From Burkholderiaceae bacterium (GTDB taxonomy: Bacteria > Pseudomonadota > Gammaproteobacteria > Burkholderiales > Burkholderiaceae_C), in the NCBI GenBank assembly GCA_026125795.1, contig JAHCKM010000001.1:1550001-1614000 (forward strand): DNA of 64,000 nt, written 5' to 3'. The number at the start of each line of letters is the position of its first letter. The first letter of the stretch is position 1. The notes under the pieces are model-generated. The model ran no database searches. It was not told the origin of the DNA and saw only the letters and a list, made by a program, of their open reading frames with translations. The translations under genes and the position numbers were made by a program. Positions 38,395-48,950 of the stretch are shown here, in pieces.

Positions 38395-39150
38395 CTAGCT
38401 CTCGCGCTCGGTTTCGACGCCGTCCAGCAGGTGCTGCAATCGCCGCGGGTCGGGGATGCGCAGATCGCGGTTGCGCACGAACAGCAGCCGCTGGGCCTGC
38501 AGCTTGGAGAACGAGCGGCTCACGGTCTCGACCGTGAGGCCCAGGAAGCTGCCGATCTCTTCGCGCGACATGCGCAGGGTGATCGAGGTGGCGGAGAAGC
38601 CGCGCGCCTGCATCCGGTTCGACAGGTTGAGCAGGAAGGCCGCGAGGCGCTGTTCGGCAGCCAGGCTGCCCAAGTGCAGTATGACGTTGTGCGTGCGCAC
38701 GATCTCGCGGCTCATCATGCGGTGCAGCTGCTGCCGCAGCGCGCCGACCTCGTTGGCCAGGTCTTGCAGCCACTCGTAGGGAATCACGCAGACCACCGAG
38801 TCCTCCAGCGCCACCGCGTCGACCTGGTGTCGGCGGCTGTCGATGCCGTCCAGGCCCAGCAGGTCACCGCCCAGCTGGAATCCGGTCACTTGCCCGCGTC
38901 CCTCGGGCGTGAACAGGCAGGTCTTGAAGGACCCCGCCCACAGCACGAAGATCGACTCGAACGGGTCGCCCGAGCGGAACAGATGCTCCGCGCGCGCCAC
39001 CTTGCGCCGCGCTGCGACCAGCCGCCGGTCGATGTACTCCAGTTCGGGCGCGGACAAGCCCAACGGCAGGCACATCTCGCGCAGGTTGCATGCGCCGCAG
39101 ATGGACCTCAAGTCGACCTGCTGCCGGAGTTGAATGACGGCGGAGTTCAC
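38395..39150 (-). CDS. fnr: FNR-type transcriptional regulator with [4Fe-4S] ligands
   Basis: A 251-residue Crp/Fnr regulator. Three N-terminal cysteines (C18, C21, C27 in [10 protein letters not shown]) and a fourth in [13 protein letters not shown] match the four iron-sulfur ligands of E. coli FNR. The DNA-recognition helix is [20 protein letters not shown], nearly the FNR consensus. It is divergent from the cytochrome locus and separated from it by 156 bases containing an FNR-like box. It is expected to sense oxygen and control anaerobic genes. Confidence 0.93.
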
Positions 39151-39306: not shown

Positions 39307-39648
39307 ATGAAGAAGGCTTGCGGGGTGGTGCTGGCGCTTGCCGCGCTCGGCGCAGGGACGGGGCTAAGCGTCGCCGCCGATCCGGTCGACGCGGACGCGG
39401 CGCAGGCGCTGATCAAGAAGAGCGACTGTGGCAAGTGCCACGCGGTCGACAAGAAGAAGGACGGTCCGGCCTACAAGGAAACCGCGGCCAAGCACAAGGG
39501 CAAGGCGAGCGCCGAGGATGATCTGTACAAGCACCTGACCACCGCGCCGAAGATCAAGATCGACGGCAAGGAGGAGGAGCACAAGAAGGTCAACTCGACC
39601 AACGAGGCCGAAGTGCGCAACCTGGTGCGCTACATCCTCTCGCGCTGA
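39307..39648 (+). CDS. Periplasmic monoheme c-type cytochrome
   Basis: A 113-residue protein. The signal peptide ends near LSVAAD, and one heme motif, CGKCH, is at C41. The lysine-rich mature part ends in EVRNLVRYILSR, the usual last helix of class I cytochromes c. After the heme motif no methionine occurs, so the sixth ligand is not the usual Met; the histidine in KEEEHKK is a candidate. It is the first gene of the locus and a likely soluble carrier between the tetraheme protein and the decaheme conduit. Confidence 0.85.
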   Translation: MKKACGVVLALAALGAGTGLSVAADPVDADAAQALIKKSDCGKCHAVDKKKDGPAYKETAAKHKGKASAEDDLYKHLTTAPKIKIDGKEEEHKKVNSTNEAEVRNLVRYILSR

Positions 39649-39690
39649 GCCTGGCTTCGCCATCGTTCGCGTCGCATCGGCGGGGTCGAC

Positions 39691-40305
39691 ATGGACAAGA
39701 ACAAGAAGGAGTTCGTCGCCGTCGCGCGGCGCAACTGGAAGCTCGTGCTCGGCTTGGGCGTGCTCGGCTTGTTTGTCGCGGTGCTGCTGGTGATCGGCGG
39801 CGCTGCCGGCTTGGCCTGGACCAGCACCGAGTCGTTCTGCATCGGCTGCCACGAGATGCGCGACAACGTCTATGCCGAATACAAGGACACGGTGCACGAC
39901 CGCAACCGCACCGGCGTGCGCGCCGTCTGCACCGATTGCCACGTGCCGCGTGAGGTGGGTCCCCTGCTGGCGCGCAAGGTGGCGGCCACGTTCGAGCTCT
40001 ATGGCCACCTGACCGGCGTCATCGACACCAAGGAGAAGTTCGAGGCGCACCGGGCTGCGATGGCGCACAAGGTGTGGAAGCGCATGCTGGAAACCGACTC
40101 GCACGAGTGTCGCAACTGCCACACGGCAGACCACATGGACAAGGACAAGCAGAGCGAGAAAGCGCAGGCGCGACACGCCAAGGCCAAGGCCGAGGGCTCG
40201 ACGTGCATCGAGTGTCACTTCGGCATCGCGCACAAGGAACCCGAAGGTCCCGGACCCAAGGAGATGAAGGCTTCCAAAGAGATGAAGGTTTCCGTCACGA
40301 AGTAG
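39691..40305 (+). CDS. NapC/NirT-family tetraheme cytochrome (CymA-like quinol dehydrogenase)
   Basis: A 204-residue inner-membrane-anchored cytochrome. One N-terminal helix (about residues 17-43) is followed by four CXXCH motifs at C50 (CIGCH), C80 (CTDCH), C140 (CRNCH) and C172 (CIECH). Length and layout match NapC/NrfH/CymA proteins. In Shewanella, CymA oxidises quinol and feeds periplasmic cytochromes. Placed directly before mtrCAB homologs, this gene should be the quinol entry point. The C-terminus is lysine-rich. Confidence 0.92.
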   Translation: MDKNKKEFVAVARRNWKLVLGLGVLGLFVAVLLVIGGAAGLAWTSTESFCIGCHEMRDNVYAEYKDTVHDRNRTGVRAVCTDCHVPREVGPLLARKVAATFELYGHLTGVIDTKEKFEAHRAAMAHKVWKRMLETDSHECRNCHTADHMDKDKQSEKAQARHAKAKAEGSTCIECHFGIAHKEPEGPGPKEMKASKEMKVSVTK

Positions 40306-40337
40306 TCGGGTCTTTTCGCTCGGCTGTGGAGGGCATC

Positions 40338-43300
40338 ATGGACGTCCGTCTGATTCGCTCGATTGTCGCGGCCCCGATCGCCGCGATCGCCATGTTGATG
40401 GCAGGCTGTGGCGGCGGCTCCGGAGACGCGGGTCCGGCCGGCCCGACCGGCCCGGAGGGGCCTCCCGGGCAAGCCGGGCAGCCGGGCACGCCAGGCATCA
40501 GCGGCACGAGCGTCGTGAACATGGCTCGGAGCACGAACCCCACGGTCATCGCGGCGAATGCCGCCGTGTGGGAGACCCTGGAACCGACCGTCACGGTCAC
40601 CAGCGTCACGATCGCCAGCCCGCCGGTGGTGCGATTCACCGTCGCCGATCCCTTCGGCAAACCGGTGACCGGCCTCGGCAACACGAGCAAGTCCAGCACG
40701 GCCAAGTTCGCCGGCAACCCGAACCTCTCTTTCACGCTGGCCAAGCTGGTGCCGGCTGCCAACGGCAGCCCGAGCAAGTGGGTGAGCTACATCGTGACCG
40801 CGCTGCCGACCACCTCGGCAGCGTCGCTGTGCACGAACGATCCCAACCTGGGCTGCCCCGGGCGACCCACCAGCGACAACACCGGCACGCTGGTCGACAA
40901 CGGCGACGGCAGCTACGAATACACCTTCTGGCGTGACGTCAGGCAGGTCGGGGCGCAGGTCGCGGCGATGGCCGCATCCGCCGCCGCGGCGAATGCCAAC
41001 AACAGCGTGGCGGACCTCGGCGATCTGACATTCGCCGACACCGCGGTGCATCGGCTGACGATCCAGCTGTCCGGCGCCGCGCCGGGCACCGGCACGAACA
41101 CCCCCACCGGTGCGGACTCCGGCATCCCCGAGGTGCTGATGAGGAAGCCGGCCAACGCGATCCACGACTTCATCCCCGCCACCGGCGCCAAGATCACCAC
41201 CGAGTTCAACCGCGACATCGTCGCCACCAAGAACTGCGAGAACTGCCACCGCAAGTTGCTCGGCATCCCGGGTCTGAGCGAGGCGGAAGACTCCGCGATG
41301 GTGCACGGCGGCGGCCGCAACAACACACAGTACTGCGTCAACTGCCACACCGACCAGCGCAAGTACGGACGCGCCGAGGCCACGTACAACGCCTCGACGA
41401 TGACCTTCAGCGGCAGCACGACAAGGGTCGACGGCCGCGCCGTCTTCAACTTCCCCAACATGATTCACAAGTTCCACGCCGGGCCGCTGCTGGCGAAGAA
41501 GAACTACAACCCGAACTTCGCCGAGACCACCTACCCGCAGGACATCCGCAACTGCACGTCGTGCCACGCCGGCACCGACGCGCAGAACCTGCCCGCCCGG
41601 ATCACCAAGACCAAGGACGGCGACCAGTGGAAGACGGTGCCCAGCGCGCTGGCCTGCGGTGCCTGCCACGACGGCATCAACTTCGCCACCGGCGCCGGCA
41701 TGACGCTGGGCAACGCGGCGAGCTGCCGGGCCAACCCGACGATCGGTGGTGCACCCAACCCGGCGTGCACGCAGTCGCCGACCGCGCACGAGGGCGGCCC
41801 ACAGGCCAGCGACGCGAATTGCGCCGTCTGCCACAAGCCGGGCGTGCTGGCCGGCAGCACCGACATCGACCTGGTGCATTTCCCGGTGACGCCGCCGGTC
41901 ATGAGCAACGCGCTCACGGTGGCGGGCACCAGCGCCAACAGCAACGCGGCCTTCATCGCCTCCGGGGGCTCCGCCGGTCGGCTGCCCACCGGCGCGATCA
42001 ACGTCAGCTACGACATCAAGAGCGTGTCACGCGCGTCGAACGGCAACCCGGTGATGGTGTTCCGCATGCTGCAGAACGGCGCACCGGTGGCGCTGAACGA
42101 TTTCGCCACCGTCGCGCCCGACCCGGTCACGGGCCAGAAGGAGATCTGGCCCAACTTCATGGGCGCGCCGAGCCTGTACTGGGCGTTCGCGGTGCCGCAG
42201 GACGTTGCGCTGGCACCTGCCGTCACGGCGCCGGCGGATTTCAACGCCAGCATCTCGATCTACCTGCGCTGCCTGTGGAACGGCACCGCCGGCACCACGG
42301 CGTGCGGAGCGAGCTCGTCAGGCGCCGCCAGCACCGCCGCCGGCACGCTGGTCGCAGGTACCGGGGCCGACGCCGGCTATTACGTGGCCACCTTGACCGG
42401 GGCCACGATCCCGGCCAACGCGGTGATGCTGACCGGCGGCATGGGCTTCTCGTACAACCTGCGGACGACGCTGCCGCTGACGCAGACGAACCTGCCCGAC
42501 TTCCCGACCACCGCGTCGCCGGTGCCGGTCGGCACGGGTTCGAGCGATCTGATCGCCGGCATGCCCAACCGCAGTGGCGGCCTGATCGTCATCGCGCCCA
42601 ACGCCTCCAGGGTGGCGGCCGCGGGTTGCACCGGCGGTGCCGCCGCGGGCTGCACCACCGCCGGTGGCTACACCGGGCGCCGCGCCATCGTCGAGGACGC
42701 ACGCTGCAACGCGTGCCACCAGGAGTTGGGCACCTTCACCGAAGAGGCCTTCCACGGCGGCCAGCGCAACGACGGCACGACCTGCTCGTGGTGCCACAAC
42801 CCCAACCGCACCAGCAGCGGCTGGTCGATCGACTCCACGCACTTCATCCACGCGATCCACGGGTCGGCCAAGCGACAGGTCCCGTTCACCTATCAGGCCA
42901 CCACCACCAACCCGGCCGGCCTCTCCGAGGTCTCGTACCCCGGGATCCTCAACGACTGCGTGACCTGCCACCTGCCCGGCACCTTCGACTTCTCGGCCAC
43001 CGCTTCGGCTGCTGCCATCGGCCAGGGCGGGGACCAGGTCGACAAGCGGCAGTACCGGACCGTCGGCACGGGGACGTACTCGGCCGGGCCCGCGACGTCG
43101 CCGTTTGTGCAGCCGCCGTACGCGTCCGCGCTCGGCACGGCCTATGGCTCGGGCTTCAGCTTCAACGCGCTCACGGGTGTGGTCACGGAGGCCGCGGGAA
43201 CCACGCTGGTGATGTCGCCGACGGTGTCGGTGTGCTCGGCGTGCCACAACACGGCCGATGCGATCACGCACTTCAAGATCAATGGCGCCGCGTACTACCA

Positions 43301-43403
43301 GGCGCGCAGCTCGGCCATCACCGGGACGAACGAGACCTGCCTGATCTGCCACGGCACCGGCCGGATCGCCGACATCGCGGTGATGCACTCGAAGAACAGG
43401 TGA
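40338..43403 (+). CDS. mtrC: OmcA/MtrC-family decaheme outer-surface cytochrome, lipoprotein
   Basis: A 1021-residue protein. Lipobox LMAGC (about residue 24) is followed by a collagen-like Gly-X-Y stretch (about residues 30-55). Five CXXCH motifs start at C300, C333, C406, C440 and C495, then five more at C790, C816, C874, C966 and C1001. The 5+5 arrangement matches the two pentaheme domains of MtrC/OmcA, separated here by about 295 residues of mostly beta-type sequence. Cys pairs such as SLCTNDPNLGC may form disulfides. It should present electrons to minerals or other acceptors outside the cell. ATG 40338 follows GGAGG. Confidence 0.92.
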   Translation: MDVRLIRSIVAAPIAAIAMLMAGCGGGSGDAGPAGPTGPEGPPGQAGQPGTPGISGTSVVNMARSTNPTVIAANAAVWETLEPTVTVTSVTIASPPVVRFTVADPFGKPVTGLGNTSKSSTAKFAGNPNLSFTLAKLVPAANGSPSKWVSYIVTALPTTSAASLCTNDPNLGCPGRPTSDNTGTLVDNGDGSYEYTFWRDVRQVGAQVAAMAASAAAANANNSVADLGDLTFADTAVHRLTIQLSGAAPGTGTNTPTGADSGIPEVLMRKPANAIHDFIPATGAKITTEFNRDIVATKNCENCHRKLLGIPGLSEAEDSAMVHGGGRNNTQYCVNCHTDQRKYGRAEATYNASTMTFSGSTTRVDGRAVFNFPNMIHKFHAGPLLAKKNYNPNFAETTYPQDIRNCTSCHAGTDAQNLPARITKTKDGDQWKTVPSALACGACHDGINFATGAGMTLGNAASCRANPTIGGAPNPACTQSPTAHEGGPQASDANCAVCHKPGVLAGSTDIDLVHFPVTPPVMSNALTVAGTSANSNAAFIASGGSAGRLPTGAINVSYDIKSVSRASNGNPVMVFRMLQNGAPVALNDFATVAPDPVTGQKEIWPNFMGAPSLYWAFAVPQDVALAPAVTAPADFNASISIYLRCLWNGTAGTTACGASSSGAASTAAGTLVAGTGADAGYYVATLTGATIPANAVMLTGGMGFSYNLRTTLPLTQTNLPDFPTTASPVPVGTGSSDLIAGMPNRSGGLIVIAPNASRVAAAGCTGGAAAGCTTAGGYTGRRAIVEDARCNACHQELGTFTEEAFHGGQRNDGTTCSWCHNPNRTSSGWSIDSTHFIHAIHGSAKRQVPFTYQATTTNPAGLSEVSYPGILNDCVTCHLPGTFDFSATASAAAIGQGGDQVDKRQYRTVGTGTYSAGPATSPFVQPPYASALGTAYGSGFSFNALTGVVTEAAGTTLVMSPTVSVCSACHNTADAITHFKINGAAYYQARSSAITGTNETCLICHGTGRIADIAVMHSKNR

Positions 43404-43428
43404 TGCACCTGACCGCGGCGAAACGAGG

Positions 43429-43836
43429 GTGCATTCGGTGCGACACCACGTCATCGGCTGCGCGCTGATCCTGGCGTGCGCGGCGGTCAGCGTCGGGGGC
43501 GTCGGCGCGTCGGCCCCAGTTGCCGACCCGCACGCCCCGGCTCGGCCCGCGCCAAAGGCGCCGAACAAGGGCGCATCGGCGGCGCCGGTCAAGCCGATCG
43601 ACATCAACAGCGCGAGCCGCGCGCAGCTCAAATCGCTGCCGGGCATCGGCGACGCCGAGGCCGACAGGATCATCTCCGCGCGTCCCTACCTGAGCAAGGC
43701 GCACCTGGTGACCGAGGCCGGGTTGCCCACCGGCGTCTACCTGTCGATCCGACGTCAGATCGTTGCGGTGCAGAACAAGCAGGCGCGCGCGAAGCTGAAG
43801 GCGCTGGCCGCGTCGCAGGGCAGGGTTGGACCATGA
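43429..43836 (+). CDS. Exported helix-hairpin-helix protein (ComEA-like domain)
   Basis: A 135-residue protein: signal-like N-terminus (HHVIGCALILACAAVSVGG), Pro/Ala linker, then one ComEA-type domain, PIDINSASRAQLKSLPGIGDAEADRIISARPY. The basic C-terminus contains QARAKLKALAAS. The start is GTG 43429 or 43438. The stop overlaps the mtrA-like start (ATGA), so it is co-translated with the electron conduit. ComEA domains bind DNA, and HhH modules can also mediate protein contacts; what it does between mtrC and mtrA is unknown. Confidence 0.8.
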   Translation: MHSVRHHVIGCALILACAAVSVGGVGASAPVADPHAPARPAPKAPNKGASAAPVKPIDINSASRAQLKSLPGIGDAEADRIISARPYLSKAHLVTEAGLPTGVYLSIRRQIVAVQNKQARAKLKALAASQGRVGP

Positions 43837-44822
43837 GAGTCTTCAACGCCTGGACCGCGGCGCTGCTGCTCCTGCTTGCGGGCCTGGCCTCTCAGCCGGC
43901 GGCGGCGCAAACCGCCGCTGCGCCTGCCGGGGCCGCTTCAGCGCCAGCGGGCATCGGCACCGAGTACAGCGAAAAGGGCGCCGACACCTGCCTGGGCTGC
44001 CACGACGAGGAGGCCGACACCACGACCTTCACGACCGCGGCGATCTTCAAGACCCGGCATGCGCACCGCGGCAACAAGGCCTCTCCGTTCGGTGCCGGCG
44101 GGCTGCAATGCGAGGCCTGCCACGGCCCGGGCGGGCGCCACGCGACCAAGGGCAGCGACAAGAAGAGAAGCATCAACAGCTTGAAATCGAACTCGTTCCT
44201 GCCGGTGGCCGAGCGCAACGCGACGTGCCTGCAGTGCCACGAGAACCGCTCGCGCACCGGCTGGCACGCGGCCGCGCACGAACGCGGCGCGCTGGCCTGC
44301 ACCGATTGCCACCGGCTGCACGTCGAGCGCGACGCCGTGCTGACCAAGGCCGACCAGGCCGAGGTGTGCTACAGCTGCCACAAGAAACAGCGCGCCGATT
44401 TCCACAAGGCGTCGACGCATCCGGTGCGCTTCGGACTGATGCGCTGCAGCGACTGCCACAGCGCGCACGGCTCGCCGAGCAGCGCGATGCTGATCAAGCC
44501 GACGCTGAATCAGACCTGCTATGCGTGCCATGCCGACAAGCGCGGGCCGTTGCTGTGGGAGCACGCGCCGGTGTCCGAGGACTGTTCGCTGTGCCACAGC
44601 GCGCACGGCTCGGTGCGCAACGCCTTGCTCAACAAGAGCCCGCCGCTGCTGTGCCAGCAGTGCCACAGCCAGGCCGGGCATCCGTCGGTGGCGCGCACCG
44701 GCGGCTCGCTGCCCGGTGGCAGCGCCGGCGCCCAGATCTTCCTGCTCGCCGGCAGTTGCACCAACTGCCACTCGCAGGTTCACGGGTCCAACCATCCCGC
44801 CGGTGCGAAGCTGATGCGATGA
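43833..44822 (+). CDS. mtrA: DmsE/MtrA-family periplasmic decaheme cytochrome
   Basis: A 329-residue protein. The signal peptide ends near AAAQTAAA. Ten CXXCH motifs follow: CLGCH (C53), CEACH, CLQCH, CTDCH, CYSCH, CSDCH, CYACH, CSLCH, CQQCH and CTNCH. Length and heme number match MtrA and DmsE, which sit inside the MtrB barrel and carry electrons across the outer membrane. ATGA overlaps link it to the HhH gene before and the porin gene after. Confidence 0.94.
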   Translation: MRVFNAWTAALLLLLAGLASQPAAAQTAAAPAGAASAPAGIGTEYSEKGADTCLGCHDEEADTTTFTTAAIFKTRHAHRGNKASPFGAGGLQCEACHGPGGRHATKGSDKKRSINSLKSNSFLPVAERNATCLQCHENRSRTGWHAAAHERGALACTDCHRLHVERDAVLTKADQAEVCYSCHKKQRADFHKASTHPVRFGLMRCSDCHSAHGSPSSAMLIKPTLNQTCYACHADKRGPLLWEHAPVSEDCSLCHSAHGSVRNALLNKSPPLLCQQCHSQAGHPSVARTGGSLPGGSAGAQIFLLAGSCTNCHSQVHGSNHPAGAKLMR

Positions 44823-46963
44823 AGGATCGATCGACTCGGCGGCCGGCCCCGATCACGGACGCGACCATGAAGACCTTCAGCTCGCTGTTGCAGCTGGCCG
44901 CGCTCGGCGCGCTGTCGAGCGCCGCCTGCGTTGCGTTGGCAGCCCCCGACACCTCGCAGTGGAAGTGCGAGACGTGTCCGTTCGAGAAGGAGGGCCGCAG
45001 CGGCTCGGTCGATGCCGGGGTGATCGGCGTCAGCGACGACTCGCAGAAGTTCGGCGACTACACCGGGCTTGACCGCAAGGGTGCCTACCTGGGCCTCGGC
45101 GGCCGCGTGCGCTACCGCGGCGGCAACGGCGTGTACGGCACGCTCGAGGCGTCGGACCTCGGTCTGGGCACGCGCTCGGTCGAGTTCGACGGCGGCCGCG
45201 AGGGGCTGTACACCCTGCGACTGGGCTACGCCGAAATCCCGCGCCGCCAGGCCGACGGCGCGATGACGCCGTACCTCGGCGTCGGCGGTGCGAGGCTGAC
45301 ACTGCCCGGCGGTTTCCCCGCCGTCGACACCGCGTCGATGCCGCTGGCCAGCACGCTGCAGTCGGTCGACGTCAGCTCCAAGCGCTCGCGCTTCGACGCC
45401 GGCTTTGCGTGGACCGCCGGCGAAGAATGGAGCACGCAACTGAGCTACCGCCGCGATTTGCGCGATGGCCTTCAGCGCATCGGCGGCTCGTTCTTCATTG
45501 CCAACGCGTCGCAGTGGGTCGCCCCGCTGGACCACACGACCGACCAGCTCGAGGTGTCTGCCACCTACGGCAGCCAACGCCTGCAGGCGACGCTGGCCTA
45601 CCAGGTCTCGCTGTTCCGCAACGGCGAGGCGTCGCTGACCTGGTCCAATCCCTTCAACCCGATCAACGGCGCCGCCGCGGGTCAGCTCGCGCTGGCGCCC
45701 GACAACCAGTTCCACCAGATTCTGGCGACGGCGGGATACCAGGTCACGCCGACCCTGCGCGCCAGCGGCAACATCGCTTTCGGGCGCATGACGCAGAACG
45801 AGTCGTACCTGCCGATCACCGTCAACGGCAGCCTCGCGCCGTCCGTGCCGCCGCTGCCGGTTTCTTCGCTCGACGGCGAGGCCTATACGTTCAACGCTGG
45901 CGCGCGCGTGACCGCCACGCCGATGGACGGCCTGAACCTGCACGCGAGCTACGACCGCAACACGCGCGACAACAGGACCGACAGCCTCGGCTACCCGTCG
46001 GTGTCGACCGACATGTTCCTCAACGCCAACCCGCGCACCAACCAGCCGTTCAGCTTCTTCCAGGACCGCTTCCGGCTGGGCGGCGACTACCGGTTTCGCG
46101 CCAGCAGTCTGAAGACGTCGGTCGGTCTCGATCAGGACTATCGCGAGCGCTCGCTGCAGGAGGTGGTGACCACCCGCGAAACGACGCTGTGGGGCCGTGT
46201 GGAAGGCCGGCCGGTGGACGCCGTGCTGCTGCAGCTGAAGCTCGGCTATGGCCAGCGCGACGGTGACACCTACGGCACGGCCACGTGGATCGACCCGCCG
46301 CAGAACCCGCTGATGCGCAAGTTCAACCTGGCCGACCGCAAGCGCGAGAGCGCCGGCGGGCGCGCAGACTTCGCGCCGGCCGAAAACGTCACGCTCGGCC
46401 TCAATGCCGACTATGCGAAGGACAGATACGACCGCTCGACGCTCGGCCTGACCGACGCGCGCACGGTCAGCGTCGGCGGCGACCTGTCGGCCGCGTTCTC
46501 CGATGCTACGCAGGTGTATGCCTTTGCACAGATCGAGCGCATCCGCTCCGACCAGGCGGGCAGCCAGGCGTTCGGCGTGCCCGACTGGACGGGGCGCAAC
46601 GAGGACCGCACCCATAGCTTGGGTGCCGGTGTCAAGCACCTGGCGATGGGCGGCAAGCTCGAACTCGGCGCCGACGCGGTGCTCACGCGCATGCGCTATG
46701 ACGTCACCGTTGATGCCGGTGTGGCGGCTCCGCCGTTCCCGTCTGCCACCGCGTCGATCGATCGCCTGCGGCTGCGCGCCGTCTACCAACTGCAGAAGAG
46801 CCTCTCGCTGGTCGGCAGCTGGTGGTACGAGCGCCACGTCTCGACCGACTGGCATCTCGACGGCGTGTTGCCAGGCACCGTTTCGAACCTGCTTGCGCTC
46901 GGCGTGCAGCCGCCGCGATACACGGTGCACGCGGTGCAGTTCGGGTTGCGCTATCGCTTCTGA
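44819..46963 (+). CDS. mtrB: MtrB/PioB-family outer-membrane porin of the electron conduit
   Basis: Up to 714 residues. The signal peptide begins at MKTFSSLLQLAAL (residue 17), so the effective start may be ATG 44867 although ATG 44819 overlaps the mtrA-like stop. The mature N-terminus has WKCETCPF, the CXXC signature of MtrB proteins (C50, C53). Regular amphipathic strands then run to a C-terminal VQFGLRYRF, the aromatic end of an outer-membrane barrel. It should sheath the decaheme MtrA-like protein. Confidence 0.93.
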   Translation: MKDRSTRRPAPITDATMKTFSSLLQLAALGALSSAACVALAAPDTSQWKCETCPFEKEGRSGSVDAGVIGVSDDSQKFGDYTGLDRKGAYLGLGGRVRYRGGNGVYGTLEASDLGLGTRSVEFDGGREGLYTLRLGYAEIPRRQADGAMTPYLGVGGARLTLPGGFPAVDTASMPLASTLQSVDVSSKRSRFDAGFAWTAGEEWSTQLSYRRDLRDGLQRIGGSFFIANASQWVAPLDHTTDQLEVSATYGSQRLQATLAYQVSLFRNGEASLTWSNPFNPINGAAAGQLALAPDNQFHQILATAGYQVTPTLRASGNIAFGRMTQNESYLPITVNGSLAPSVPPLPVSSLDGEAYTFNAGARVTATPMDGLNLHASYDRNTRDNRTDSLGYPSVSTDMFLNANPRTNQPFSFFQDRFRLGGDYRFRASSLKTSVGLDQDYRERSLQEVVTTRETTLWGRVEGRPVDAVLLQLKLGYGQRDGDTYGTATWIDPPQNPLMRKFNLADRKRESAGGRADFAPAENVTLGLNADYAKDRYDRSTLGLTDARTVSVGGDLSAAFSDATQVYAFAQIERIRSDQAGSQAFGVPDWTGRNEDRTHSLGAGVKHLAMGGKLELGADAVLTRMRYDVTVDAGVAAPPFPSATASIDRLRLRAVYQLQKSLSLVGSWWYERHVSTDWHLDGVLPGTVSNLLALGVQPPRYTVHAVQFGLRYRF

Positions 46964-47002
46964 TTCGGCCGCCGCGGCATGAAGGGTTCAGCGAGGTTCA
47001 CC

Positions 47003-47371
47003 ATGAAACGACACACCCTTGCGCTGCTCGGCAGCGCGCTCCTGGCGGGGATCGCGGGAGGCTGCGCACCCGTCCCGCCGGCGGAACAAGCCGCCCTGCC
47101 TGGGGTCGACGTCGCCGCGGCCAGGTCATTGGCGATGAGGAACAACTGCTTGCGCTGCCACGGCATGACCAAGCACAAGGAAGGTCCGACCTACGCCGAG
47201 GTGGCCGCGGAGTACCGCGCCAAGCCCGATGCCGAGAACCGGCTGTACGAGCACCTCACCTCGGGCAAGGGCAAGGTCATGCCCGATGGGCACGTCGAAC
47301 ATCACAAGACCATCAGCAACAGGAGGCCGGAGGAGATCCGGAATCTCGTCCGCTGGGTCCTTGCTCAGTAG
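47003..47371 (+). CDS. Monoheme c-type cytochrome, predicted lipoprotein
   Basis: A 122-residue protein. The lipobox is IAGGC at C21 and one heme motif, CLRCH, is at C49. DGHVEHHKT near residue 98 and a final EEIRNLVRWVLAQ helix follow. It is clearly related to the first cytochrome of the locus (same KEGPTY/KDGPAY and LYEHLT/LYKHLT segments). ATG 47003 is chosen because GCGAGG precedes it; ATG 46979 would lengthen the signal. It is probably anchored in the periplasm as an electron carrier. Confidence 0.87.
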   Translation: MKRHTLALLGSALLAGIAGGCAPVPPAEQAALPGVDVAAARSLAMRNNCLRCHGMTKHKEGPTYAEVAAEYRAKPDAENRLYEHLTSGKGKVMPDGHVEHHKTISNRRPEEIRNLVRWVLAQ

Positions 47372-47375
47372 GCGT

Positions 47376-48125
47376 GTGCCTTCGGTGCACGTGTCTCCAC
47401 CCTTGGCCGCCGCCGTCCAAGTCACGGGAGCCGACGATGCCGTGGCGCTGCGCGCGCCACCGGTACCGCGCTACCTCGAACAGGTGTACTGGTGGGCCTA
47501 CGTGCACCCGAAGGCGGTGCACCTTTTCGAGCGCGATTGGCTGGTCAACGCGATCCTGTTTGGCAACTACGGCCGGCTGCGCGACGCCGCGCTGGCCGAC
47601 CTCGGGGGCACCGTGCGCGGCCGCACGCTGCAGGTGGCGTGTGCCTACGGCAACCTGACCGCGCGCCTGCAGCAGCGCCTGGCGAGCGACGCCAGCCTGG
47701 ACGTGGTGGACATCCTGCCGATCCAGTTGCGCAACCTGGCGCGCAAGCTGCCGGACGGCAGGCGGCTGCGCCTGCTGCACGGCGACTCCTCGGCACTGAC
47801 TTGCCACGACGCCAGCTATGACCAGGTGCTGCTGTTCTTCCTGCTGCACGAGCAGCCGGAGCACGTGCGCCGCGCCACGCTGGCGCAGGCGCTGCGCGTC
47901 GTGAAGCCGGGCGGCAAGGTCGTGATCGTCGACTACCACCAGCCTTCGCGCTGGCACCCGATGCGCTGGCTGATGCGGCTGGTGTTCGCCAAGCTCGAGC
48001 CGTACGCGATGGACCTGTGGCACCACGAGATCGCCGAGTTTTTGCCGTCGCAGGTGCAACCGGCTGTCCTGTCCAAGCGCACCTACTTCGGCGGCTTGTA
48101 TCAGAAGCTGGTGCTGGTCCGCTGA
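47376..48125 (+). CDS. rquA: Rhodoquinone biosynthesis methyltransferase RquA (predicted)
   Basis: About 249 residues. The opening PRYLEQVYWWAYVHPKAV and FERDWLVNAILFGNYGRL are as I remember RquA proteins. The SAM motif is LQVACAYGNLT rather than the usual GxGxG, a feature of RquA, and VIVDYHQPSRWHPMRW follows. RquA converts ubiquinone to rhodoquinone, a low-potential quinone used in anaerobic electron transport. The start is GTG 47376, 47385 or 47391. It directly follows the cytochrome genes on the same strand. An ordinary class I methyltransferase is the alternative. Confidence 0.75.
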   Translation: MPSVHVSPPLAAAVQVTGADDAVALRAPPVPRYLEQVYWWAYVHPKAVHLFERDWLVNAILFGNYGRLRDAALADLGGTVRGRTLQVACAYGNLTARLQQRLASDASLDVVDILPIQLRNLARKLPDGRRLRLLHGDSSALTCHDASYDQVLLFFLLHEQPEHVRRATLAQALRVVKPGGKVVIVDYHQPSRWHPMRWLMRLVFAKLEPYAMDLWHHEIAEFLPSQVQPAVLSKRTYFGGLYQKLVLVR

Positions 48126-48227: not shown

Positions 48228-48950
48228 ATGGCCGGACATTCCAAATGGGCCAACATCCAGCACCGCAAGGGCCGGCAGGATGAGAAGCGAGGCAAGATCT
48301 GGACGCGCGTGATCCGCGAGATCATGGTCGCGGCGCGCGCCGGCGGCGGTGATGTCAACGCCAACCCGCGCTTGAGGCTTGCGATCGACAAGGCCAAGGC
48401 CGCCAACATGCCGGCCGACACGATCAAGCGCAACATCGACAAGGCCACCGGCAACCTCGAGGGGGTGCACTACGAGGAAATCCGCTACGAGGGCTACGGC
48501 ATCGGCGGCGCGGCGATCATCGTCGACACCATGACCGACAACCGCGTGCGCACCGTGGCCGAGGTGCGGCACGCGTTCTCCAAGCATGGCGGCAACCTGG
48601 GCACCGACGGCTCGGTGGCGTTCCAGTTCAAGCACTGCGGGCAGTTCGTGTTCGCGCCCGGCACGAGTGAAGACAAGGTGATGGAGGTCGCGCTCGAAGC
48701 CGGCGCCGACGACGTGATCACCGGCGACGACGGCGCGATCGAGGTGCTGTGCGCGCCGGCCGACTTCGAGGCCGTGCAGCAAGCGCTGCAGAAGGCCGGT
48801 TTGAAGCCCGATCTGGCCGAGGTCACGTGGCGCGCCGAGAATCCGGTGGAACTCGCCGGCGAGGATTCGCAGCGCATGCAGAAGCTGCTCGACGTGCTCG
48901 AAGACCTCGACGACACGCAGGCGGTCTACCACAACGCGGTGCTTGAATGA
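48228..48950 (+). CDS. yebC: YebC/PmpR-family regulator
   Basis: A 240-residue protein beginning [18 protein letters not shown], the invariant YebC start, with [16 protein letters not shown] and [22 protein letters not shown] 48228 follows GGGGAGAACAGCTCA. YebC proteins have been described as transcription regulators and, in more recent work, as translation factors that relieve stalling. It is the first gene of the conserved yebC-purD-hemF block after the electron-transfer locus. Confidence 0.96.

What the first reader, a model, noticed from the sequence alone, without database searches (positions are those of the whole stretch)
39307..48125. Complete Mtr-type extracellular electron transfer locus in a betaproteobacterium
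The genes run in order: monoheme cytochrome, CymA-like tetraheme, decaheme MtrC/OmcA lipoprotein, HhH protein, decaheme MtrA, MtrB porin with CXXC, monoheme lipoprotein cytochrome, RquA-like methyltransferase. CXXCH counting gives 1+4+10+10+1 = 26 hemes. All needed parts from quinol to cell surface are present in one place. MtrCAB conduits are well known in Shewanella and reported in Rhodoferax. The gene order with a built-in quinol entry, two carriers and a quinone-modifying enzyme is the most interesting system in the window.
Basis: partly seen in the sequence, partly recalled or inferred. Interest (0 to 1): 0.9.

Follow-up and report, generated by a model that had tools for sequence, protein, structure and literature searches.

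The report
Mineral-breathing gene cluster with rhodoquinone enzyme
This bacterium carries one compact gene set that looks built to pass respiratory electrons to minerals or electrodes outside the cell, with the gene for a special low-potential quinone (rhodoquinone) at its end, which suggests that rhodoquinone feeds this wire and can be tested directly.

Summary
Observation confirmed: eight same-strand genes (39307-48125) with 26 CXXCH motifs: MtoD-like cytochrome, CymA/NapC tetrahaem, MtrC, HhH protein, MtrA, MtrB, MtoD-like lipoprotein cytochrome, RquA; core proteins pass curated cut-offs. An Mtr conduit in a betaproteobacterium is a known kind. The last gene is what appears new: it passes the rhodoquinone-synthase model (306 vs 175 bits). 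In 299 genomes of the family, MtrB passes in 20, RquA in 19, both in 13 (1.3 expected). Of 15 MtrC genomes, 11 have RquA, one an RquA fragment, three MenA. Of the 80 best rquA loci elsewhere, 25 have mtr genes within 10 kb. This genome has no match to MenA, MqnC or fumarate-reductase anchor FrdC, yet two rquA genes, each beside cymA. Best reading: rhodoquinol drives CymA/Mtr respiration in menaquinone-less Burkholderiales. Against: rquA tracks fumarate reductase at least as closely (all 13 strong-FrdC genomes have RquA; frd genes near 12 of 20 family rquA loci), and two MtrC genomes of other families lack RquA. No paper in the searched library holds both 'rhodoquinone' and 'CymA'. Function is inferred, not shown.

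The parts
38395..39150 (-). FNR/CRP-family regulator, divergent from the operon; has C-x2-C-x5-C near the N-terminus as in oxygen-sensing FNR
   Evidence: NF008365 Fnr 212.3 bits (cut-off 228, just missed), PF13545, PF00325, PF00027; cysteine pattern read by eye from the translation, its meaning is recalled
39307..39648 (+). exported monohaem cytochrome c, MtoD-like
   Evidence: PF00034 33.9 bits; 1 CXXCH; best solved structure 4xxl (E 2.7e-24); that 4xxl is MtoD of Sideroxydans is recalled
39691..40305 (+). CymA-like tetrahaem quinol dehydrogenase (NapC/NirT family), one N-terminal membrane helix (by eye)
   Evidence: PF03264 215.8 bits; TIGR02161 227.5 (below its 310.6 cut-off, so not NapC proper); 4 CXXCH
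40338..43403 (+). MtrC/OmcA-family decahaem surface lipoprotein with a short collagen-like GXY stretch behind the lipobox
   Evidence: TIGR03507 413.7 bits, PF22113 in two stretches, 10 CXXCH, PF01391 19.6 bits (below its 27.2 cut-off); MtrF 3pmq E 1.1e-19
43429..43836 (+). small exported helix-hairpin-helix (ComEA-like) protein, conserved companion of mtrC; function unknown
   Evidence: PF12836 33.2 bits (cut-off 27), comEA TIGR01259 23.4 bits (cut-off 152); neighbourhood
43833..44822 (+). MtrA periplasmic decahaem cytochrome
   Evidence: TIGR03508 284.9 bits, 10 CXXCH; 6r2q_A E 1.4e-83
44867..46963 (+). MtrB outer-membrane porin with N-terminal CXXC
   Evidence: PF11854 516 bits, TIGR03509 458.8 bits; 6r2q_B E 1.1e-87
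47003..47371 (+). monohaem cytochrome c lipoprotein, MtoD-like
   Evidence: PF00034 27.7 bits, 1 CXXCH; 4xxl E 2.2e-28
47391..48125 (+). RquA, rhodoquinone synthase (start uncertain: GTG at 47391 or 47442 among others; the profile match begins at 47463)
   Evidence: NF038261 306.5 bits, cut-off 175; aspartates 107 and 132, 25 apart as D118/D143 of R. rubrum RquA
48228..48950 (+). YebC-like gene, right border of the operon, not part of the system (name recalled)
   Evidence: ORF

Best explanation
The locus is one operon for outward extracellular electron transfer that brings its own low-potential quinone. Shown by sequence: a complete set of CymA, monohaem carriers, MtrA, MtrB and MtrC plus a true RquA family member, and a recurrent genomic link between rquA and mtr/cymA genes. 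Inferred: RquA converts ubiquinone (about +100 mV) into rhodoquinone (-63 mV); dehydrogenases reduce it; rhodoquinol is oxidised by CymA in the inner membrane; the MtoD-like cytochromes carry electrons to MtrA inside MtrB; MtrC passes them to Fe(III), Mn(IV), humics or an electrode. Rhodoquinone thus takes the place that menaquinone has in Shewanella, because this genome has no detectable menaquinone pathway.
For: Family matches and haem counts. MtrB over cut-off in 20 of 299 genomes of the family, RquA in 19, both in 13, 1.3 expected, Fisher p 1e-13; by genus both in 10 of 141, p 1e-8 (neither test corrects fully for ancestry). Of 31 genomes tested for MtrC, 15 have it; 11 of these have RquA, one (G166) an RquA fragment at a contig end, the other three MenA. 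Of 20 rquA loci in the family sample, 14 have mtr, cymA or an octahaem MtrH/CbcL-like gene within about 10 kb, 7 of them without frd genes. In a larger, partly overlapping collection 25 of the 80 best rquA loci have mtr genes within 10 kb, 11 of them without frd; in 18 of 20 such genomes tested MenA was not found at E 1e-20. Own genome: no match to MenA, MqnC or FrdC and no flavocytochrome c fumarate reductase over cut-off, but two rquA genes, each with cymA and a monohaem cytochrome near it and no frd. Rhodoferax ferrireducens, an Fe(III) reducer with an mtr cluster, is stated to make rhodoquinone and to share the rquA orthologue group (passages of PMC6529003 and PMC6295460; the 1984 reference given for the rhodoquinone predates the species).
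Against: rquA is tied at least as tightly to fumarate reductase: all 13 genomes with a strong FrdC (over 100 bits) have RquA, 11 of them also MtrB, and 12 of the 20 family rquA loci have frd genes within about 10 kb. Among the 286 genomes without strong FrdC only two (this one and G121) have both RquA and MtrB (p 0.012). In an order-wide sample of 240 genomes the only two other MtrC genomes (G425, G449) lack RquA and have no MenA over cut-off. Three MtrC genomes of the family have MenA and no RquA, and the window's CymA is 77% identical to that of one of them, G101, so rhodoquinone is not required for this kind of conduit. 33 of 80 rquA loci show neither mtr/cymA nor frd, 17 of the 50 with at least 5 kb on both sides show neither mtr nor frd. 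No convincing FNR site lies before the operon. No expression, quinone or electrochemical data exist for this strain in my calls.
Confidence: 0.6

Rival explanations
1. RquA serves fumarate reduction only (QFR or a reversed succinate dehydrogenase); rquA and mtr are neighbours because both are cargo of an anaerobic lifestyle and are co-inherited, not because rhodoquinol feeds CymA.
For: frd genes lie within 10 kb of rquA in 36 of 80 loci and in 12 of 20 family loci; strong FrdC goes with RquA in 13 of 13 genomes. The abstract of PMC9814641 gives fumarate use as the role of rhodoquinone.
Against: This genome has no FrdC match and no flavocytochrome c fumarate reductase over cut-off; its four PF02910 places are one beside citrate synthase (SDH by position, inferred), NadB, a PRK08275-type protein and AprA. 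Neither rquA copy has frd within 10 kb; both have cymA. 11 of 25 mtr-linked rquA loci lack frd nearby. The PRK08275-type protein, named fumarate reductase/succinate dehydrogenase flavoprotein, keeps this rival alive.
Confidence: 0.22
2. The chain runs inward: Fe(II), Mn(II) or a cathode feeds electrons through MtrCAB to CymA, which reduces quinone, as proposed for Mto of Sideroxydans.
For: Both monohaem cytochromes match 4xxl (MtoD, recalled) best. Ramlibacter lithotrophicus RBP-1 has rquA beside mtr genes (L109), and strain RBP-2 of that species is linked to oxidative EET (passage of PMC8805035). A PccH-family cytochrome sits by cymA in G121.
Against: A low-potential quinone is harder to reduce from Fe(II), and Sideroxydans ES-1 is reported to have ubiquinone but no menaquinone genes (PMC13390432, passages). 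Family genomes with MtrB over cut-off but no MtrC have RquA or MenA over cut-off in 2 of 5, those with MtrC in 14 of 15 (small numbers; with the four sub-cut-off MtrB genomes added it is 3 of 9, and one of these, G094, has a sub-cut-off MqnC match).
Confidence: 0.14
3. The methyltransferase homologue is inactive or makes another product, and ubiquinol feeds CymA.
For: One RquA from the class GWC2-55-46 gave no rhodoquinone in E. coli (passage of PMC13386864). Ubiquinone is expected in betaproteobacteria (recalled).
Against: Equivalog score well above cut-off, aspartate pair with the right spacing, 54-75% identity to 18 of 19 other RquA of the sample (43% to the last). RquA activity is reported as confirmed in 15 species (PMC11707229, passage).
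Confidence: 0.04

Closest known systems
MtrCAB with CymA of Shewanella
   Same: CymA-type quinol dehydrogenase, MtrA with MtrB, decahaem MtrC; the best solved match of MtrA and MtrB is 6r2q
   Different: One operon with its own cymA and two monohaem carriers; MtrC is 1021 aa with a collagen-like stretch; an HhH protein between mtrC and mtrA; rquA, and no menaquinone genes found
Betaproteobacterial mtrCAB clusters (Groups 3 and 4 of Baker et al. 2022, PMC8805035)
   Same: mtrCAB with mtoD/cymA-type neighbours in Burkholderiales; the species Caenimonas koreensis and Ramlibacter lithotrophicus are in that paper and among my rquA-mtr loci
   Different: That paper names cytochrome-maturation and menaquinone genes as what a recipient must already have, and holds the words rhodoquinone and rquA zero times; the rquA link is added here. 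Which of its groups this locus joins was not tested
Mto pathway of Sideroxydans lithotrophicus ES-1
   Same: MtoD-like monohaem cytochromes and a CymA-type inner-membrane tetrahaem (ImoA there)
   Different: Here a surface decahaem MtrC and RquA are present; ES-1 is reported to have only ubiquinone genes (PMC13390432, passages)
RquA-FrdABCD rhodoquinone fumarate respiration
   Same: RquA itself; 14 of 80 related rquA loci hold both mtr and frd genes within 10 kb
   Different: No FrdC in this genome, no frd within 10 kb of either rquA

Membership tests
MtrCAB porin-cytochrome conduit | decahaem MtrA (TIGR03508) beside MtrB porin (TIGR03509) | tested here: met
   284.9 bits and 458.8 bits, both over cut-off; 10 CXXCH in MtrA
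MtrCAB porin-cytochrome conduit | surface decahaem MtrC/OmcA lipoprotein | tested here: met
   TIGR03507 413.7 bits, 10 CXXCH; lipobox by eye, surface location not tested
MtrCAB porin-cytochrome conduit | electron flow across the outer membrane | not testable with these tools
   needs protein or cells
CymA | NapC/NirT family with four haem motifs and one N-terminal helix | tested here: met
   PF03264 215.8 bits; 4 CXXCH; helix by eye
NapC proper | TIGR02161 over cut-off | tested here: not met
   227.5 against 310.6 bits
CymA | oxidises quinol and feeds periplasmic cytochromes | not testable with these tools
   needs assay
RquA | NF038261 equivalog over cut-off | tested here: met
   306.5 against 175 bits
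RquA | two SAM-site aspartates (D118 and D143 in R. rubrum) | tested here: met
   D107 and D132, same spacing of 25; correspondence inferred from motif and spacing, R. rubrum RquA itself was not aligned; in a few relatives the second is N
RquA | makes rhodoquinone | not testable with these tools
   needs LC-MS
MtoD | closest solved structure 4xxl | tested here: met
   E 2.7e-24 and 2.2e-28, best of all chains; identity of 4xxl as MtoD recalled
MtoD | bis-His haem ligation, high potential | not tested
   ligands not modelled
Menaquinone-fed Mtr chain | menaquinone pathway in the genome | tested here: not met
   no MenA match and no MqnC match in this 98.9% complete genome; other steps of either pathway were not searched

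The most novel reading that the evidence does not exclude
Rhodoquinol is the physiological electron donor of Mtr-type extracellular respiration in a large group of Burkholderiales: rquA travels with mtrCAB/cymA as an adapter that lets a ubiquinone-only recipient run a conduit that elsewhere depends on menaquinone.
Probability: 0.55. Interest if true: 0.78.

Novelty: new variant of a known kind. Interest (0 to 1): 0.66.

Why it matters
Mtr respiration in Shewanella is explained with menaquinol, yet only 20 of 299 genomes of this family have MenA over cut-off, and a 2026 study of Sideroxydans remarks that its host of a CymA-type protein has no menaquinone genes (PMC13390432, passages). If rhodoquinone fills this gap, it names the missing quinone, predicts which Burkholderiales can reduce minerals or electrodes, gives rhodoquinone a role beyond fumarate respiration, and offers a simple kit (rquA plus cymA-mtr) for wiring ubiquinone-only hosts. 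The genome here is a good test bed: no MenA, MqnC or FrdC match, and two rquA genes, both beside cymA.

Tried and rejected
FNR control of the operon: the divergent neighbour looks like FNR, but none of the three FNR-box matches with up to one mismatch in the window lies before the first gene, and the best site there has two mismatches, matched by 11.6% of simple shuffles. Sigma-70 promoter-like sites: none; terminator-like sites: 3, below the shuffle mean of 5.1.

A test of MtrC against RquA over all 299 genomes was computed but is not used, since MtrC was searched in only 31 of them. A MenA to MtrB link (4 of 20, p 0.035) is weak.

FrdC: 18 of 299 genomes pass Pfam's cut-off of 24.2 bits; I count as strong the 13 over 100 bits and drop five of about 24-27 bits, none of which has RquA over cut-off. 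Absence of FrdC is not absence of every fumarate reductase: G026 and G153 have no FrdC but a FrdA-type gene within 1.4 kb of rquA, and G121 was not tested with PF02910.

L122 counts among the 25 mtr-linked loci only through an MtrC-like stretch beside cymA; the genome that seems to be the same (G211) has no MtrC or MtrB over cut-off, so 24 is the stricter count. Some of the 25, such as L141, L146 and L157, show mtrA and mtrB but no mtrC. Six of the 80 loci look like the same records as G handles, judged from contig lengths (L122/G211, L124/G143, L130/G227, L132/G228, L141/G034 equal; L121/G017 differ by 100 bases), so the two sets are not independent. These six G copies were left out of the RquA tree; among its 94 rows none are identical.

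RquA tree (94 rows, quick): the mtr label needs at least 14 changes, 3 forced by starred branches, against a mean of 22 in shuffles: repeated gains or losses, partly clustered. 26 rows without a sure label were not counted, support is low and one row (G126) is very long.

Not tested: group membership after Baker et al., conservation of the FNR gene, the empty site in same-genus genomes, Mqn genes of G425 and G449. Structure prediction was not used. Organism name: no call gives it; the related-loci search says it may leave out the window's own record.
Full report
WHAT IS THERE. Eight genes on the + strand fill 39307-48125 with gaps of at most about 70 bp. In order: monohaem cytochrome c, CymA-like tetrahaem, MtrC/OmcA decahaem lipoprotein, exported HhH protein, MtrA, MtrB, monohaem cytochrome c lipoprotein, RquA. 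CXXCH motifs number 1+4+10+10+1 = 26. Profiles confirm each: PF03264 215.8 bits; TIGR03507 413.7 (cut-off 209.3); TIGR03508 284.9 (192.2); TIGR03509 458.8 (240.05); NF038261 306.5 (175); HhH PF12836 33.2 (27); cytochromes PF00034 33.9 and 27.7 (21.3). MtrA and MtrB match 6r2q chains A and B at E 1.4e-83 and 1.1e-87; chain A carries a wrong-looking molecule name in the table. MtrC matches MtrF (3pmq, E 1.1e-19). Both monohaem cytochromes match 4xxl best. A divergent FNR-type regulator lies at 38395-39150.

THE GENOME. The window is G000:C1:1550001-1614000 of a 6.57-Mb, six-contig assembly, 98.9% complete. It has one MtrB, one MtrC over cut-off, two RquA over cut-off, no MenA match, no FrdC match, no MqnC match, and no flavocytochrome c fumarate reductase over cut-off (best 145.9 of 285.45 bits). 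Its four PF02910 places are a strong one with citrate synthase downstream (SDH by position, inferred), NadB, a PRK08275 protein named fumarate reductase/succinate dehydrogenase flavoprotein, and AprA. The second rquA (L082 9012-9878) follows ATP-synthase-like genes and is followed, after a 151-aa ORF without a Pfam match, by a monohaem cytochrome and a NapC/NirT tetrahaem. So both rquA copies stand near a cymA, and neither has frd genes within 10 kb.

CO-OCCURRENCE. In 299 genomes drawn from the family, MtrB passes its cut-off in 20 (27 with any match) and RquA in 19. Thirteen have both; 1.27 are expected, Fisher p 1e-13; counted by genus, 10 of 141 with 15 and 15 marginal, p 1e-8. I tested 31 of these genomes for MtrC: 24 of the 27 MtrB-matching ones (three very weak ones left out), the six RquA-only genomes and G273. 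Fifteen pass. Of these 15, 11 have RquA, G166 has an RquA fragment that starts at a contig end, and G101, G204 and G281 have MenA; G091 has both RquA and MenA. Thus 14 of 15, or 15 with the fragment, have a gene for a low-potential quinone, against 36 of 299 overall. Of five genomes with MtrB over cut-off and no MtrC, two have RquA; with four more whose MtrB is below cut-off, 3 of 9 have RquA or MenA.

THE FRD CONFOUNDER. A strong FrdC (over 100 bits) is in 13 of 299 genomes and all 13 have RquA; 11 also have MtrB. Five further genomes barely pass Pfam's cut-off and are not counted. Pfam scans show frdA, B, C and D genes behind rquA in G133 and G007. Of the 20 rquA loci of the family sample, 12 have frd genes within about 10 kb: 7 together with mtr, cymA or octahaem genes, 5 without. 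Among the 286 genomes without strong FrdC, nine have MtrB, six RquA, two both (this genome and G121; p 0.012). So a part of the mtr-rquA link may be carried by frd. The window genome is one of the few cases in which that explanation is weakened.

NEIGHBOURHOOD. Of those 20 rquA loci (this window plus 19 read with about 10 kb on each side where the contig allows), 14 have an mtr gene (9, of which one, in L071, is only an MtrC-like stretch), a cymA (8) or an octahaem protein (4) nearby; 7 of the 14 have no frd; one locus has neither kind. The octahaem protein has 8 CXXCH and a formate-dehydrogenase-gamma-like domain, which I read as the CbcL/MtrH/MtoC type from the layout of that family given in PMC6295460 (passages). 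Within 10 kb, 25 have mtr genes, 8 cymA, 36 frd; 26 have mtr or cymA, 15 of these together with frd; 33 have none of these. Of the 50 with at least 5 kb on both sides, 18 have mtr and 26 frd, 11 both, 17 neither. Named carriers of rquA beside mtr genes include Ramlibacter lithotrophicus RBP-1 (L109), Caenimonas koreensis DSM 17982 (L120), Aquabacterium humicola (L124), A. terrae S2 (L130), Roseateles violae (L141), Noviherbaspirillum denitrificans (L146) and a Rubrivivax MAG (L154), whose order cyt c, cymA, mtrC, mtrA, mtrB, rquA is close to the window's but goes on with frd. I tested the genomes of 20 of the 25 for MenA: over cut-off in two (L119, L135), not found at E 1e-20 in 18.

LIMITS OF GENERALITY. 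In an order-wide sample of 240 genomes RquA passes its cut-off in 22 and MtrC in three, of which one is this genome. The other two, G425 and G449, have no RquA at E 1e-40 and no MenA over cut-off; their MqnC was not tested. The link is therefore strong in this family and present in scattered others, such as L146, L150 and L157 (Oxalobacteraceae; for the first two genera the family is recalled), but not universal. The window's CymA is 77% identical to that of the MenA genome G101, so nothing in overall sequence sets it apart as a rhodoquinol enzyme.

RQUA ITSELF. The window protein is 54-75% identical to 18 of the 19 other RquA in the alignment (one of them this genome's second copy) and 43% to that of G126. 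Its D107 and D132 have the spacing of D118 and D143, whose double replacement stopped rhodoquinone synthesis by R. rubrum RquA (PMC9814641, passages; spacing). In the tree of 94 RquA, mtr-linked rows occur in separate groups: a broad one (54 rows, support 94) that holds the window and, within it, an Oxalobacteraceae-containing group (97); the group of L149/L152/L153/L173 (95); and the group of G251 (98).

MECHANISM. Shown: gene content, family membership, recurrence. Inferred: UQ to RQ by RquA, RQH2 to CymA, then MtoD-like carriers, MtrA-MtrB-MtrC and an outside acceptor. The energetic argument uses potentials quoted in papers: RQ -63 mV (PMC11707229, passage), menaquinol -80 and ubiquinol +100 mV, MtoD +155 mV, ImoA 0 to -400 mV (PMC13390432, passages). 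If the window's monohaem cytochromes are as positive as MtoD, they may belong to a high-potential branch rather than to the CymA link; the same paper finds a second, low-potential carrier (PmcA) for that link in ES-1, but also that MtoD can take electrons from CymA and pass them to MtrA in Shewanella. Which type each of the two cytochromes here is was not tested.

LITERATURE. Baker et al. 2022 (PMC8805035; passages and part 1 of section 8 read) describe betaproteobacterial mtrCAB clusters with cymA, mtoC and mtoD and say that a recipient would need cytochrome-maturation and menaquinone genes; rhodoquinone and rquA occur in it zero times. The library holds no paper with both 'rhodoquinone' and 'CymA', one with 'multiheme', unrelated by title, and three with 'extracellular electron transfer', none on this topic by title and start of abstract. 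One search asked for any three of six terms and listed 20 of 208 papers; none of the 20 held rhodoquinone or RquA. R. ferrireducens is stated to make rhodoquinone and share the rquA orthologue group (PMC6529003, passages; the reference given for the former is of 1984, older than the species) and to have two cymA and an mtrH in its mtr cluster, the two CymA being such that they 'may oxidize different quinols' (PMC6295460, passages). I found no open paper that joins the two facts; most subscription journals are not covered.

VERDICT. As an Mtr locus it is a new member of a known kind; the operon-level rhodoquinone link makes it a variant that turns the open question of the quinone donor into a simple genetic test.

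Noticed in passing
40407-40508 (N-terminus of MtrC): About nine collagen-like GXY triplets (by eye; PF01391 19.6 bits, below cut-off) directly behind the lipobox of MtrC; runs of 9-11 in MtrC of L062, L089, L097, L135 and L154. No paper in the library holds both 'collagen-like' and 'decaheme'. A trimerising stalk for a surface cytochrome would be unusual.
   Followed up: partly
43429-43836: The exported HhH (ComEA-like) protein is a companion of mtrC: of 14 relatives found in 120 loci, 13 lie directly downstream of an mtrC (two pairs of loci, L095/L124 and L096/L130, seem to be the same records), also in MenA genomes such as G101. Role unknown.
   Followed up: partly
L076:9863-10738, and places in G007, G017, G048, G061, G121, G166, G173, G214, G251: A second, divergent RquA-like methyltransferase (103-119 bits, below cut-off) occurs in 10 of 299 genomes, 8 of which have MtrB over cut-off (p 4e-9). 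Its neighbours in L076 look like housekeeping genes by eye; product unknown.
   Followed up: partly
L082:5917-11472 (G000:C3): The second rquA of this genome sits between ATP-synthase-like genes and a cytochrome c - cymA pair, an odd company of ATPase, rhodoquinone synthase and quinol dehydrogenase.
   Followed up: partly
L081:9427-9687 (G273, same genus): Only a partial RquA match (profile 3-66, 80 bits) in a same-genus, 82% complete genome without MtrC; possibly a decayed or split gene.
   Followed up: no
L093:4205-11503 (G121): rquA next to ccm-type cytochrome-maturation genes and divergent from cytochrome c, cymA and a PccH-family cytochrome (PF22297, 194.5 bits).
   Followed up: no
G000:C4:152858-153202: AprA (TIGR02061 1088.9 bits) in the window's genome, so sulfur-compound metabolism through APS is possible.
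   Followed up: no
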